Below, piece by piece: positions 30,991 through 47,202 of a stretch of DNA of 64,000 bases (position 1 is the first letter of the stretch; each line of letters starts with the position of its first letter). The notes under the pieces were generated by a model that saw only the letters and a program-made list of their open reading frames with translations, ran no database searches and was not told where the DNA came from. Location of the stretch: positions 18,516,529 through 18,580,528 of the forward strand of contig NC_044920.1 in NCBI RefSeq assembly GCF_003576645.1. The letters run 5' to 3'. Origin of the DNA: Ipomoea triloba (lineage: Eukaryota; Streptophyta; Magnoliopsida; Solanales; Convolvulaceae). The translations under genes were made by a program, and so were the position numbers.

Positions 30991-32774
30991 TGTAGATGTT
31001 CTATCATTTGATAGAACCTAGGTTAAGAACTATCTAAGTCATTTTACTATAGATTTTCAAAGGGTAACGGATCAAAAATCTGTTGCCAACTGTACAACTA
31101 GAAATTGTCGTTATGAGGAGTACAAGTTTGCCTTTTGTGAAAAAAGAGTTGTTGAACACATTTCAAAAGGAGTATTGACATCAAGATATAAGAATAAGGG
31201 TCAAATACGCCATTCAACTGCACACTAAACTACAATTAGGCCATCGAACTAAAAACAAATACATGCAATTGGGTCCTTGAACAACACAAACTCATGCAAT
31301 ATTACCCAAAATGACCTGCTTACTTTAAAGTTTGGTAACGTGGCGGTTACCGATTTTAAAAAAATAATTTTTAAAGTAATTTTAAATAAATAATTAATTA
31401 AATTAAAAAATAAAAAACAAGAACTGTCGACCAGAGACAATTCGTCCCCGACCGACTTTTCTCCATGGCCCGGGAGATGAAGGAATCTTGAACATAAACT
31501 TCGAAACACACCGTCTCAACGAGTGTCAACAGAAAAAATCAAGATGTTTTAACTTTAGCTCACCTAACTCTTTAAATAAGACAACTCCTTAAGTATATAT
31601 CCTAGTTGGCTTGGTTTGGACTCGTACGAAAGGAAACCTTTCACTTGTATTCGTAACCTTTCACCCTAGACCTTCTGCTTTTCTAGGACAAACAACGAGG
31701 GCATTTTACTACCTTTGAGAAGTCTTAATGCTCATTTTTACTTGTATTATTGTCAATCCACTAACTTTTAGTGGACATATGTTATTTTCAAGCTTGTCTA
31801 AGAGTAACTATATATCCCCAAGATTAATGTTTTCTAAATTATCTTCTTCAAACAAATTTCTCATCAGGTAGTGTCTCTATGTGATATAACTGCTTGTGTT
31901 CTTATCCTTGACCCAATATCTACACTAAAACTTAAATCAAAACCTTTCTTGAGATAGTGTTTCTTTGGAGACGATTCTATTTTAAGAGAAGTACGTTATA
32001 ATGCGAAACATTCCTCAAATTGTTTTTGTCAAAAGATTTATGCAACTAAAAAGGTGTTTAATCAAACCATTTACAAAATCCGGATAGAACTAGTATTTTT
32101 AGTAAATGAAATAGTACGAATAGAAACTGAACTTTTGTTTGACAAAGTATGTAGAAATATAAAGATTGTTTCACTTCACCAAAACAAAGATTCCTAATGT
32201 CTGATGATGATCAATGATTATCCTCGAGGATTACCTTGACCTGCATTTTCATACACAATTGTATATAAGTAAACAAATTTAATGTAACAACTACCATGTA
32301 GTGTCATAGCATCTCGGTTACCACTCTAAATGGATGGTCATAGATTCTTTAGGCTAAAAATAATGTATAAAGTAAAAAATAAATACTACCATTAAAGAAT
32401 CATAAATATTTTTAAAAAATTCAATATCACCCAATAATGTAAACTTTACTACACCACAAATATTTATAGAATAAAATTTCATTAATTAGCACATCATTTT
32501 AGCTTATTACAGTTTGGTAGAATAAATAGTGAGAAGTGTCCAACAATTTTAAATTCTCCACCAATAAGCTATTAATTAAATCTCAACTTATTAACAAACG
32601 TATCATAAAGTTTTACTAATATGTAAAATTAGACAAAAAAAAAAAACATATTCCAGAGTGTATATAAAAAAGAAAATGGTAAAAAAGAATTGACTATTAT
32701 TATTTGTGCTACCTAATTTTCACACACGCGCCCACACACACACGCACGCATGCACGCACGCACGCACGCGCGCG

Positions 32775-32806
<32 letters not shown>

Positions 32807-33282
32807 ATGTAATGACTTATTATCAAGACATAAATAAAACAGAGTCAACAATTAAACATATATAAAAGTTAAAACGTACAAATAAAAATATTTATTTGCA
32901 TTACCACGAATGAAATTTGGATTTAACATCAAGCACCGAAGATGAGGATCAACTGGTAAGCCAAGTTCTTCATACATAGGATCATACACTCCATTCATAA
33001 TTGGCCTACACAAACATATAATAATAATTAGGCAACGAGGATAAAAAATAGCAATTAATCAAGCATATAACATATGTTATACATACGTTGATTCACTAGA
33101 AAGCCCTGGTAAAGTGTTGGTGGATTGAACTTGGGACTGCGTACTTCCTACTTGCTTCATCTTATTATTAGCAACAACTTCAACCTGTTTTTCAAAAAAT
33201 AAATTTTACTTTAAAAGTAGCCTATGACAAAAATAAATTCTATTCTTGTAAAACTTTCTAATAAAAAGTACTATAAAAGTTC

Positions 33283-33321
<39 letters not shown>

Positions 33322-44838: not shown

Positions 44839-44903
<65 letters not shown>

Positions 44904-45134
44904 NNNNNNNNNNNNNNNNNNNNNNNNNNNNNNNNNNNNNNNNNNNNNNNNNNNNNNNNNNNNNNNNNNNNNNNNNNNNNNNNNNNNNNNNNNNNNNNNN
45001 NNNNNNNNNNNNNNNNNNNNNNNNNNNNNNNNNNNNNNNNNNNNNNNNNNNNNNNNNNNNNNNNNNNNNNNNNNNNNNNNNNNNNNNNNNNNNNNNNNNN
45101 NNNNNNNNNNNNNNNNNNNNNNNNNNNNNNNNNN

Positions 45135-45199
<65 letters not shown>

Positions 45200-47202
45200 T
45201 ATCGACTTAGAAAGTTACCTTGTTAGTGTGGCTTGATCTTTTCCCTTGGGATGTACTTATACCAGAATAATGTTTGAAATTAACCTTTATAAGAGAATCA
45301 AGAGACATAGTGTAAAACTTAGTTTAAAACATATATCATTCAAAATTTATTTCTATACATTACGTAAATATTTATCAGCAGAGTCAAAAGAGCATTGTTT
45401 AAACGCCATACCACAGCAGACAGGTCTTCTGGATTGCTTGTTGGTGGCATTGTTGAATCAACATTTTCTTTAGCCTTAAAATTTTAAATTTAAAATAAAA
45501 CCATCAGAAATAATTTTATAAAATTAAGAACAAATTATAATGAAATAGGAAAATATATACCATCACTGGTTGGCTTGTGTTTCCAGTAATATGATATGAA
45601 TATTCGTTAGAAGAGCTCAACGAATTCCTTGAAGAGGGAATAGACCATATCATATTAGTGGGGTAATGTTGGAATGGTAAAGATTGTATTGGGACTGTGT
45701 CATTCAGTTGCCCCTGCATATATACATTAAGAATTTAAAGAATTTAAAATAGATAAATTTAAAATATAAAAATAAATAAATATGTTTTGTTATTAAAAGT
45801 AAACAAACCTTTGAAATTTTAAGAACAGTGCTTTCAGATGTAGAGTTAGGCACAACCCTGATAATAATAAAAAACAAATGTTACAAAATAATTTCTTTTT
45901 AGAATCACTTTATTCTTTATTTTCAATATAATTTGTTACATATAAATAACTATGACTATCTATTATACAAGCATTTGTATATGTATTTGCTATACATATG
46001 TTCCATTCTATTAAAAATGAAGACAATTTAAATGCAAATTATTTATCTATAATCTTTTTTAAGTAATACGTTTAGTAACACTATAATTCTTGATTTGATA
46101 TATATGTTTATAAGTAACAAATGAAGAGTAAAATAATATTTATAATATATAATGTAGGAACAATTTGTCAAAAGTTTCTACCTTGTAATTATATTAGACT
46201 AAAATGTCCTAAATATCTAATCTGATCTATTATTTTATTTAAATGGATTATATCACAAAGAGCCATAAAGTTACAAAAACAATGAAATACTAACAACAAA
46301 TTCTTTCACTTTTGAGGTTGATAGATTGAGAAAATTTTATATCAACTATTTTCCATTGTTGACTGGGGAATATAATGGAAATTTTCTTTCAATAGTTGAT
46401 TGGGTCATAAGTTTAAATAAAATATTGGAAAAATTTTTGGGAAGCAAAATTTTAATGTTACAATCCACTTGAATGGACGGAAATATAATTTGAAACTGAA
46501 TGTGTTCAAATTTTGGTAGAAAAAATGTTGAAATTCTTTCTACTTGTTCTATATATATATATATATATATAAAAGGAAAATGAAGAAATAAAATCAATAA
46601 AGAAAGAGAAGAAGAAAAAAATAAGTGATCTATAAAAAAGATTATGGTAATGTTACGCTGACAGAAATCTATTTGTAGAAAATTTTAACATCATGGTTGA
46701 TAGAAAATTTCTGTCAAACATGATTTAGCATTTCAAAACTTTTTAAATTGTTCCTATTGTCAGATCTGATTATATTTGATTCAGTCATTTCAACTTCTCA
46801 TACAAGTAGACCTATTAAAGATTTTGTGTTCAAACAAAATAAGTATACAAGTTCATAAAAGAGATTGATCAAAGGCTCAAACTCCTTAGATCTATTAAAA
46901 AATTGAACGCACTATATCTAGCATGAATTTGTTGAACATCTAGCAAATGAATCATATCATTGTCAAAATCATAACAACTTTATAGCCCAAGTTCAAGAAC
47001 AAAGTTTATAAAAACCATCTTTTGCATAGATCTATCATAAATATTGTCAAGAAAGACTTTTTTTTTTTTATGTAATTGAAATGAAAACTCATCATCAATA
47101 GATATATGTAAAGAACTAGAAAAGAAAAAAAAAACATATATACCTTGATGATTCCGATTCAGGAGTTGAATAAATGTCGGCACCATTGGTGAAATAAGAC
47201 AT
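43807..47202 (-). CDS. Eight-exon gene of unknown family, copy 2 (~203 aa)
   Basis: Exons are 47202-47144, 45857-45809, 45713-45561, 45474-45412, 45284-45219, 44741-44644, 44560-44460 and 43829-43807. Lengths (59, 49, 153, 63, 66, 98, 101, 23) equal those of copy 1, all junctions are GT-AG, and the frame is open to TAA. Differences from copy 1 are mostly single amino-acid substitutions (for example Met to Leu in YDPLYEELGLP, Gln to His in LPFQHYPTN). Intron 1 is about 0.9 kb longer than in copy 1, and the N gap lies inside the intron between 44741 and 45219. The conserved frame in two diverged copies is the main evidence that this is a real gene. The function is unknown. Confidence 0.6.
44844..45193. 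repeat. (TA)n repeat containing an assembly gap of 231 N
   Basis: TA runs flank N at 44904-45134. The position is intronic for the eight-exon gene copy 2 and corresponds to a short (AT)n at 33288-33316 in copy 1, so the gap probably hides only repeat. Confidence 0.9.

What the first reader, a model, noticed from the sequence alone, without database searches (positions are those of the whole stretch)
32218..47202. A duplicated eight-exon gene invisible to ORF scanning
Seen: on the minus strand, two copies (34425-32218 and 47202-43807) give eight small exons of identical length (59, 49, 153, 63, 66, 98, 101, 23 nt), all GT-AG, with consistent phase and an open frame to TAA. Introns differ in length by up to 0.9 kb while exons have no indels. 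Inference: the exon sequence has been under protein-level constraint since, or up to, the duplication. The product (~203 aa, Ser/Thr-rich, ending MNGVYDPMYEELGLPVDPHL...) matches no family I know. It sits beside a CACTA-like terminus in both copies, so it may be a mobile-element accessory gene or a captured host gene.
Basis: partly seen in the sequence, partly recalled or inferred. Interest (0 to 1): 0.85.

Follow-up and report, generated by a model that had tools for sequence, protein, structure and literature searches.

The report
Fast-evolving morning-glory gene family, tandemly duplicated
The two eight-exon copies are very probably real genes of an uncharacterised morning-glory (Ipomoea) protein family that changes quickly except for a short conserved tail, a tail also found in proteins of beans and their relatives; they look like ordinary host genes, not cargo of the nearby transposon remnant.

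Summary
Confirmed: both copies carry eight GT-AG exons of the stated lengths with an open 203-aa frame. The chain alone proves little, since shuffled sequence gives equally long chains. Relatives make the case. A third intact copy lies just outside the window. A diverged paralogue 1.8 Mb away keeps matching exons and an open frame. Annotated but unnamed I. batatas and I. nil proteins match at 62-93% identity. Against the paralogue, residues 1-163 evolve at dN/dS 1.15 (0.78-1.62) but the last two exons at 0.26 (0.09-0.71); neutral drift would have left about 7.6 stops, not 0. The constrained tail, YDPxYxxxGLPvDPHLR, recurs in unnamed legume proteins (E 2.5e-10). No Pfam match; models look disordered. 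All 24 protein-level matches in the genome are on one chromosome. The CACTA ends point away from their own gene copies, have no partner end around them, and were duplicated with the unit, so the accessory or captured-gene reading is not supported. Function is unknown; a disordered protein docking through its tail is my inference.

The parts
34367..34425 (-). copy A exon 1 (59 nt; MSYFTNGADIYST...); in-frame upstream ATG at 34467 from a 42-nt duplication
33918..33966 (-). copy A exon 2 (49 nt)
33682..33834 (-). copy A exon 3 (153 nt; split by an intron in paralogue r2)
33533..33595 (-). copy A exon 4 (63 nt)
33341..33406 (-). copy A exon 5 (66 nt; absent from I. batatas models P0002 and P0004)
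33087..33184 (-). copy A exon 6 (98 nt)
32905..33005 (-). copy A exon 7 (101 nt): conserved tail MNGVYDPMYEELGLPVDPHLRCLMLNPNF
32218..32240 (-). copy A exon 8 (23 nt, stop TAA)
31864..31919 (-). alternative last exon of copy A (DIGSRIRTQAVISHRDTT*), similar to the end of I. batatas model P0002; also in copy C, with a stop inside in copy B
34678..34737 (-). upstream exon-like block of copy A (MPNSEDIEKAAKLTPSSTFQ, GT after it); counterpart in r2 reads GHLVSNNNEDCGDNHQLTPPSSFQ
47144..47202 (-). copy B exon 1
45809..45857 (-). copy B exon 2
45561..45713 (-). copy B exon 3
45412..45474 (-). copy B exon 4
45219..45284 (-). copy B exon 5
44644..44741 (-). copy B exon 6
44460..44560 (-). copy B exon 7 (conserved tail)
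43807..43829 (-). copy B exon 8 (stop TAA)
48255..51237 (-). truncated copy B': alternative first exon, exon 1 (from 49798) and exon 2 (about 48417); no hits to exons 3-8
51128..51237 (-). alternative first exon MPNERIRKTRGG... (110 nt, GT donor at 51127), matching the start of I. batatas P0001/P0002
35804..37146 (.). four 312-316-nt tandem repeats upstream of copy A, each with the MPDERIRKTRGG block (ATGs at 36144, 36456, 36770, 37086) without the donor
35510..35780 (+). CACTA-like terminal region (5'-CACTACTGGAAATTTG), pointing away from copy A; part of the duplicated unit (right limit approximate)
48187..48253 (+). the same CACTA-like end beside copy B, pointing away from it, cut at 48253
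30235..38097 (.). span over which copy A's neighbourhood is repeated, in pieces, at copies B, B' and C (a further piece, 38094-38507, recurs at 59150)

Best explanation
A real, host-encoded, intron-rich protein gene in an Ipomoea genome, amplified by local tandem duplication. Shown by computation: three intact eight-exon copies plus fragments at C5:18.47-18.64 Mb; a 13-exon diverged paralogue (r2) and a partly deleted one (r3) at C5:20.3-20.4 Mb; frame kept over that divergence; a constrained ~30-residue C-terminal tail that also ends unnamed legume proteins; no constraint on residue identity detected elsewhere. Inferred: the product is a mostly disordered protein whose C-terminal tail is a docking peptide for a conserved partner, while the Ser/Thr/Asn/Gln-rich remainder is a tether that may change freely or under diversifying selection; alternative first and last exons vary the ends. 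The partner and pathway are unknown.
For: Unique exon chain in A and B and the same eight lengths in C. Seven I. batatas and I. nil proteins with the same exon blocks at 62-93% identity. r2 with 13 exons, continuous phase and an open 322-aa frame; exons 1 and 7 have exactly the same length as in A; seven length differences (+12, +21, -12, -15, +45, +15, +3) all divisible by 3. 0 stops in 195 codons versus 7.6 expected, P(0)=0.001 in 2000 simulations; dN/dS of exons 7+8 0.26 (0.09-0.71), of the rest 1.15 (0.78-1.62). No indels in the 612 exonic nt of each pair of copies versus 5.4-6.8 expected from the introns counted. Legume versus Ipomoea profiles match over 29 columns, E 2.5e-10; a legume-derived tail searched against the 462-Mb genome gives the five family loci as the best five of six hits. 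AlphaFold2 mean pLDDT 42 and 45, with helices only near the C-terminus.
Against: No RNA evidence could be examined. dN/dS among the recent copies is not clearly below 1 (B/C above 1), so some copies may be decaying. Whether exons are less diverged than introns depends on the introns taken: with introns 2, 3, 4 and 6, Fisher p is 0.47, 0.009, 0.23 for A/B, A/C, B/C; with introns 3, 4, 6 only 0.25, 0.0015, 0.07; with all introns counted 0.046, 4e-10, 0.009; and B/C intron 1 alone (3.8%) does not differ from B/C exons (3.1%, p 0.51). I chose the r2 exon boundaries by similarity to A. The start codon is uncertain. Low pLDDT with 6-10 sequences is weak evidence of disorder. The docking role rests only on the conservation pattern.
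Confidence: 0.6

Rival explanations
1. The gene is an accessory or captured host gene carried by a CACTA (En/Spm, Tpn1-like) transposon.
For: A CACTA-like end (CACTACTGGAAATTTG, with GACCAC-type motifs behind it) lies 1.1 kb upstream of A and 1.0 kb upstream of B. Tpn1 elements of I. nil are known to capture host genic regions (PMC5105172, passages).
Against: Each copy's end opens away from that copy; the end at 35510 does open towards copy B, but no inverted partner was found beyond B with the end patterns searched (-5000 to 75000, window numbering; the exact string CCAGTAGTG in the 207-kb stretch occurs once, at -15810, on the wrong side). The end was duplicated with a unit of about 8 kb. 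Related ends occur in 41 listed places, 37 of them away from this cluster, but all 24 protein matches of the gene are on C5 and the DNA search, which scored 40 of 333 candidates, adds off C5 only one exon-2 fragment besides intron-7 stretches. The paralogues r2 and r3 have none of the four end strings searched in about 30 kb each.
Confidence: 0.04
2. An old real gene family of which the A/B/C copies are now dead or dying duplicates drifting neutrally; only r2 or copies elsewhere still work.
For: dN/dS among A, B, C is 0.42-1.54 by NG86; exon and intron divergence do not differ clearly in A/B and B/C under some choices of introns; fragments and a truncated copy B' show birth and death; r3 has lost the middle exons; the alternative last exon of B has a stop.
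Against: All three copies keep frame, start, stop and all splice dinucleotides; 0 exonic indels in each pair versus 5.4-6.8 expected (P 0.001-0.004 per pair, not independent).
Confidence: 0.25
3. One reading: an upstream coding exon (GHLVSNNNEDCGDNHQLTPPSSFQ) joins an exon that begins well before the ATG, as r2 suggests.
For: r2 and r3 have an acceptor AG and an open phase-0 frame (SVWHSHSFESHQFQQALP in r2) before the ATG, and an upstream block ending in a GT donor, similar in A and C; the block is 72 nt in r2 and 69 nt in A.
Against: In A, B' and C the acceptor position reads GTTTAA or GTTTAC; in B an acceptor exists but the frame does not join. I. batatas P0003 starts at the same ATG (MAYFTNGADIYST).
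Confidence: 0.35
4. The eight-exon chain is a chance reading of two similar noncoding sequences.
For: Open 8-exon chains of at least this length occur in 5 of 6 shuffles.
Against: Independent relatives share these particular exons, phases and protein sequence.
Confidence: 0.01

Closest known systems
Uncharacterised Ipomoea proteins LOC109151229, LOC109184657, LOC109151252 (I. nil models; I. batatas models named after the first two)
   Same: Same protein, exon block by exon block, 62-93% identity in 7 of 7.
   Different: These models lack, add or swap end exons: P0001/P0002 use the MPNER/MPDER first exon, P0002 the DIGSR last exon, P0004 is fused to a DUF7792-like piece; none carries a functional name in the listing.
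Uncharacterised legume proteins (Cajanus A0A151U5I4, Glycine soja HKD37_10G029000, Phaseolus PHAVU_010G078024, Senna G2W53_044373 and others)
   Same: 9 of the 11 found carry a clear form of the tail near the C-terminus (such as YDPMYEQMGLPVDPHLR), P0017 a divergent one, P0015 none; no Pfam domain in the 6 of 11 scanned.
   Different: 201-380 aa, and the profile comparison found no similarity outside the 29-column tail.
Tpn1-family CACTA elements of Ipomoea nil
   Same: A CACTA-like terminus lies near the gene; Tpn1 elements capture host genes (PMC5105172, passages).
   Different: No pair of ends encloses the gene, the gene's protein matches are all on one chromosome, and its duplication is by tandem units.

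Membership tests
Ipomoea LOC109151229-like proteins | sequence similarity along the spliced product | tested here: met
   7 of the 8 listed hits are Ipomoea proteins, E 7.8e-100 to 1.7e-34, covering 53-90% of the query; alignment A1
Ipomoea LOC109151229-like proteins | C-terminal tail core YDPxYxxxGLPVDPHLR | tested here: met
   in A, B, C and 6 of 7 Ipomoea database proteins (P0003 ends before it); r2 and r3 have it with changes (YDPRYMDFSLPIDPHLR, YDPRYKDFGLPIDPHLR)
Legume proteins ending in a YDPMYEQMGLPVDPHLR-like tail | the C-terminal tail | tested here: met
   hhalign E 2.5e-10, probability 96.8, over 29 columns, from shallow alignments; genome search with the legume tail
Legume proteins ending in a YDPMYEQMGLPVDPHLR-like tail | similarity outside the tail | tested here: not met
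   only the tail aligns
CACTA transposon cargo or accessory gene | gene lies between two inverted CACTA ends with a 3-bp target duplication | tested here: not met
   no pair of ends found around either gene with the patterns searched; target duplication not examined, since no second end was found
CACTA transposon cargo or accessory gene | copies dispersed with the element | tested here: not met
   24 of 24 protein matches on C5; element ends on many contigs; one exon-2 fragment on C13
CACTA transposon cargo or accessory gene | a Pfam transposase domain in the product | tested here: not met
   no Pfam match at E up to 5; the TnpA and TnpD proteins themselves were not compared
Tpn1 family proper | its 28-bp terminal inverted repeat | not tested
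   the repeat's letters were not in the passages read
Expressed protein-coding gene | spliced transcripts over the junctions | not testable with these tools
   no RNA-seq collection available

The most novel reading that the evidence does not exclude
The tail YDPxYxxxGLPvDPHLR marks an unrecognised family of flowering-plant proteins, present at least in Convolvulaceae and legumes, in which only a C-terminal docking peptide is conserved and the rest diverges at or above the neutral rate while copies are born and lost in tandem: the pattern of genes in genetic conflict, reproduction or immunity.
Probability: 0.25. Interest if true: 0.6.

Novelty: new member of a known kind. Interest (0 to 1): 0.4.

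Why it matters
It is a worked case in which a gene that gives no long ORF and no domain hit is nevertheless very probably real, recognisable only by comparing paralogues. It also yields a short, testable motif shared by two distant plant families, with no Pfam hit in the proteins scanned, in proteins otherwise free to change. If the tail binds a conserved partner, one pull-down could give many unnamed proteins a first function. It matters little beyond that until expression and partner are known.

Tried and rejected
Rejected: CACTA cargo; chance chain; an upstream DNA-binding domain in r2 (the listed ORFs of at least 45 aa show a sulfate-transporter-like gene, recognised by eye, up to about 6.4 kb of that stretch and nothing recognised after it; 2 of the 50 upstream ORFs listed were scanned against Pfam, no hit). 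The sixth hit of the legume-tail search (C14) lies in an ENTH-like gene, judged by eye, and was discarded as unrelated. The r2 protein search has one hit off C5, on C9 at E 3.2, taken as chance. A PDB profile search with the legume alignment gave one antibody chain at E 0.67, taken as chance. No fold search was made, because both models had low confidence.

Literature: no paper of the held library contains LOC109151229, LOC109184657, LOC109151252, the five legume identifiers searched, or DUF7792. The search for orphan genes and Ipomoea gave 138 papers, of which the 10 listed were seen as a listing and not followed up. PMC5105172 and PMC4158355 were seen as passages only.

Limits: the protein database could be searched three times, so absence from other plants is not shown. 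r2 exon boundaries were picked by hand. dN/dS used NG86 on pairs (YN00 and LWL85 for A, B, C gave similar values; YN00 failed for the diverged pairs); no tree-based test. In the partition test exon 5b and the second exon 3a/3b/4 block of r2 were left out; the whole-CDS test was made with either block left out. In one search the correct frame did not show a lower dN/dS than the two shifted frames; it differs from them in having no stops, against 8-19 per sequence. In one search the intron totals leave out introns 1 and 5 in A/B and B/C and intron 1 in A/C. In one search I first took introns 3, 4 and 6 only; one search adds intron 2 and the other choices.
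Full report
What was checked. The eight stated exon lengths were searched in both copies together; one solution exists, at the stated coordinates, with GT-AG at every intron, 612 nt and 203 aa each, 19 nt differences and no indel. As a control I asked how easily such a chain arises: with exons of 20-200 nt and introns of at least 60 nt, the best 8-exon open chain is 867 nt in copy A, 702 nt on its reverse strand, and 714, 780, 732, 696, 552 and 663 nt in six shuffles. 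The chain by itself is therefore no evidence; the relatives are.

Where it lies. The window is C5:18516529-18580528 of a 462-Mb assembly in 17 contigs. Seven of the eight database proteins found with the spliced product are from Ipomoea batatas or I. nil, so the genome is Ipomoea or close to it; the exact species is not established.

Relatives in the same genome. A protein search gave 24 exon-level matches, all on C5. They resolve into copies A and B; a third intact copy C at C5:18586945-18583270 with the same eight exon lengths; a truncated copy B' with exons 1 and 2; exon-1 pieces at 18469678 and 18636355; and two diverged paralogues at 20.32 Mb (r2) and 20.40 Mb (r3). A DNA search, which scored 40 of 333 candidates, adds a 225-bp piece with exon 2 on C13, 88% identical, whose donor reads AT instead of GT; its other listed hits off C5 fall in two stretches of intron 7. 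The neighbourhood of A, about 30.2-38.1 kb, is repeated in pieces at B, B' and C at 88-97% identity: local segmental duplication.

The paralogue r2. Read by hand against A, r2 has 13 exons with GT-AG ends and continuous phase, 969 nt, 322 aa and a stop at the end of exon 8. Exons 1 (59 nt) and 7 (101 nt) have the same length as in A; A's exon 3 (153 nt) is two exons of 86+67 nt; the block exon 3a/3b/4 is present twice; exon 5 is longer and an extra Arg/Gly-rich exon of 72 nt follows. All seven non-zero length differences are multiples of 3. r3 keeps exons 1, 7 and 8, but the stretch holding exons 2 to 6 in r2 is missing.

Selection. A versus r2 over 195 aligned codons: 81 identical residues, dN 0.52, dS 0.60; shifted frames give similar ratios but 9-19 stops per sequence. 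By part: residues 1-163 ratio 1.15 (bootstrap 0.78-1.62); exons 7+8 ratio 0.26 (0.09-0.71). Neutral simulation to the same divergence gives 7.6 stops on average and none in 0.1% of 2000 runs; none is seen. So the frame has been kept and the tail constrained, while the rest shows no constraint on residue identity. Among the recent copies the signal is weak: NG86 dN/dS values are A/B 0.028/0.045, A/C 0.019/0.046, B/C 0.035/0.023. Exonic divergence is 3.1, 2.5 and 3.1% for A/B, A/C, B/C; introns 2, 3, 4 and 6 give 4.0, 5.9 and 4.7% (p 0.47, 0.009, 0.23), all introns counted give 5.3, 10.2 and 6.0% (p 0.046, 4e-10, 0.009), and B/C intron 1 alone 3.8% (p 0.51). No exonic indel is seen where the introns counted predict 5.4-6.8 per pair.

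Ends of the gene. I. batatas models P0001 and P0002 begin with MPNER or MPDERIRKTRG.... That exon, 110 nt with a GT donor, exists at B' (51237-51128) and beside C; beside A it lies in a four-fold 312-316-nt tandem repeat without the donor. P0002 ends with an alternative last exon that exists downstream of A (31919-31864) and C and carries a stop in B. P0004 is fused to a DUF7792-like piece whose relative lies at 29250-29372. In A a 42-nt duplication adds an in-frame ATG. In r2 and r3 the frame runs upstream of the ATG to an acceptor, and a further block ending in a donor precedes it; A and C hold a similar block. The true start is unsettled.

The tail. The Ipomoea and legume alignments match over 29 C-terminal columns at E 2.5e-10 and nowhere else reported; both alignments are shallow. 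A legume-derived tail searched against the Ipomoea genome gives the five family loci at E 2.5e-6 to 0.04 as best hits; the sixth, E 0.135, is unrelated by eye. The 11 legume proteins found are unnamed; 9 carry a clear tail, one a divergent one, one none; the 6 scanned lack Pfam domains. AlphaFold2 gives mean pLDDT 42 for the I. batatas and 45 for the Cajanus protein, with helices only near the C-terminus. With so few sequences this is weak support for disorder.

The CACTA end. CACTACTGGAAATTTG starts at 35510 and 48187 on the plus strand, each opening away from its own gene copy; related copies lie in B' (TACTACTGTAAATTTG) and C (CACTACTAGAATTTTG). The end at 35510 opens towards copy B, but no inverted partner was found beyond B with the patterns used. 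Of 41 genome matches to this end, 4 are at this cluster and 37 elsewhere, those 69-86% identical, whereas the gene's protein matches are on C5 only. None of four end strings occurs within the r2 or r3 stretches.

Mechanism. Shown: coding frame kept, tail constrained, rest free. Inferred: a disordered protein that works by docking through its tail, with tandem copies and alternative end exons as variants. The function is not known, and no paper was found under the identifiers searched.

Noticed in passing
L040/L023, about C5:20385885-20396100: Upstream of paralogue r3, 18 listed copies of a roughly 571-bp tandem repeat (some spacings differ), each carrying a copy of the gene's upstream exon-like block (mostly MGHLVSNNEDNGDNHQLTPPSSFQ-like), GT after it in 18 of 18, followed by the canonical one; further block copies lie left of these, up to the edge of the stretch fetched, so the array may be longer.
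   Followed up: partly
35804-37146: Four 312-316-bp tandem repeats carry the alternative first exon MPDERIRKTRGG; the donor seen beside B' and C is missing, and one of the four has an in-frame stop.
   Followed up: partly
44827-45215: Intron 5 of copy B holds a near-perfect palindrome (arms of about 176 nt around 45019), which accounts for most of its extra length.
   Followed up: no
L050 (C13:13714600-13717600), about 1428-1800: Dispersed piece of the gene's intron 1 and exon 2, 88-89% identical, donor lost; it matches more of intron 1 of B and C than of A, so intron 1 of A looks shortened.
   Followed up: partly
29250-29372: Fragment similar to the DUF7792 part of I. batatas P0004, downstream of copy A on the same strand.
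   Followed up: no
20040-22844: 934-aa ORF on the minus strand that looks like an NBS-LRR resistance gene, by eye.
   Followed up: no
33-4544 and 53474-57495: Gypsy-like and Copia-like retrotransposon ORFs, by eye.
   Followed up: no
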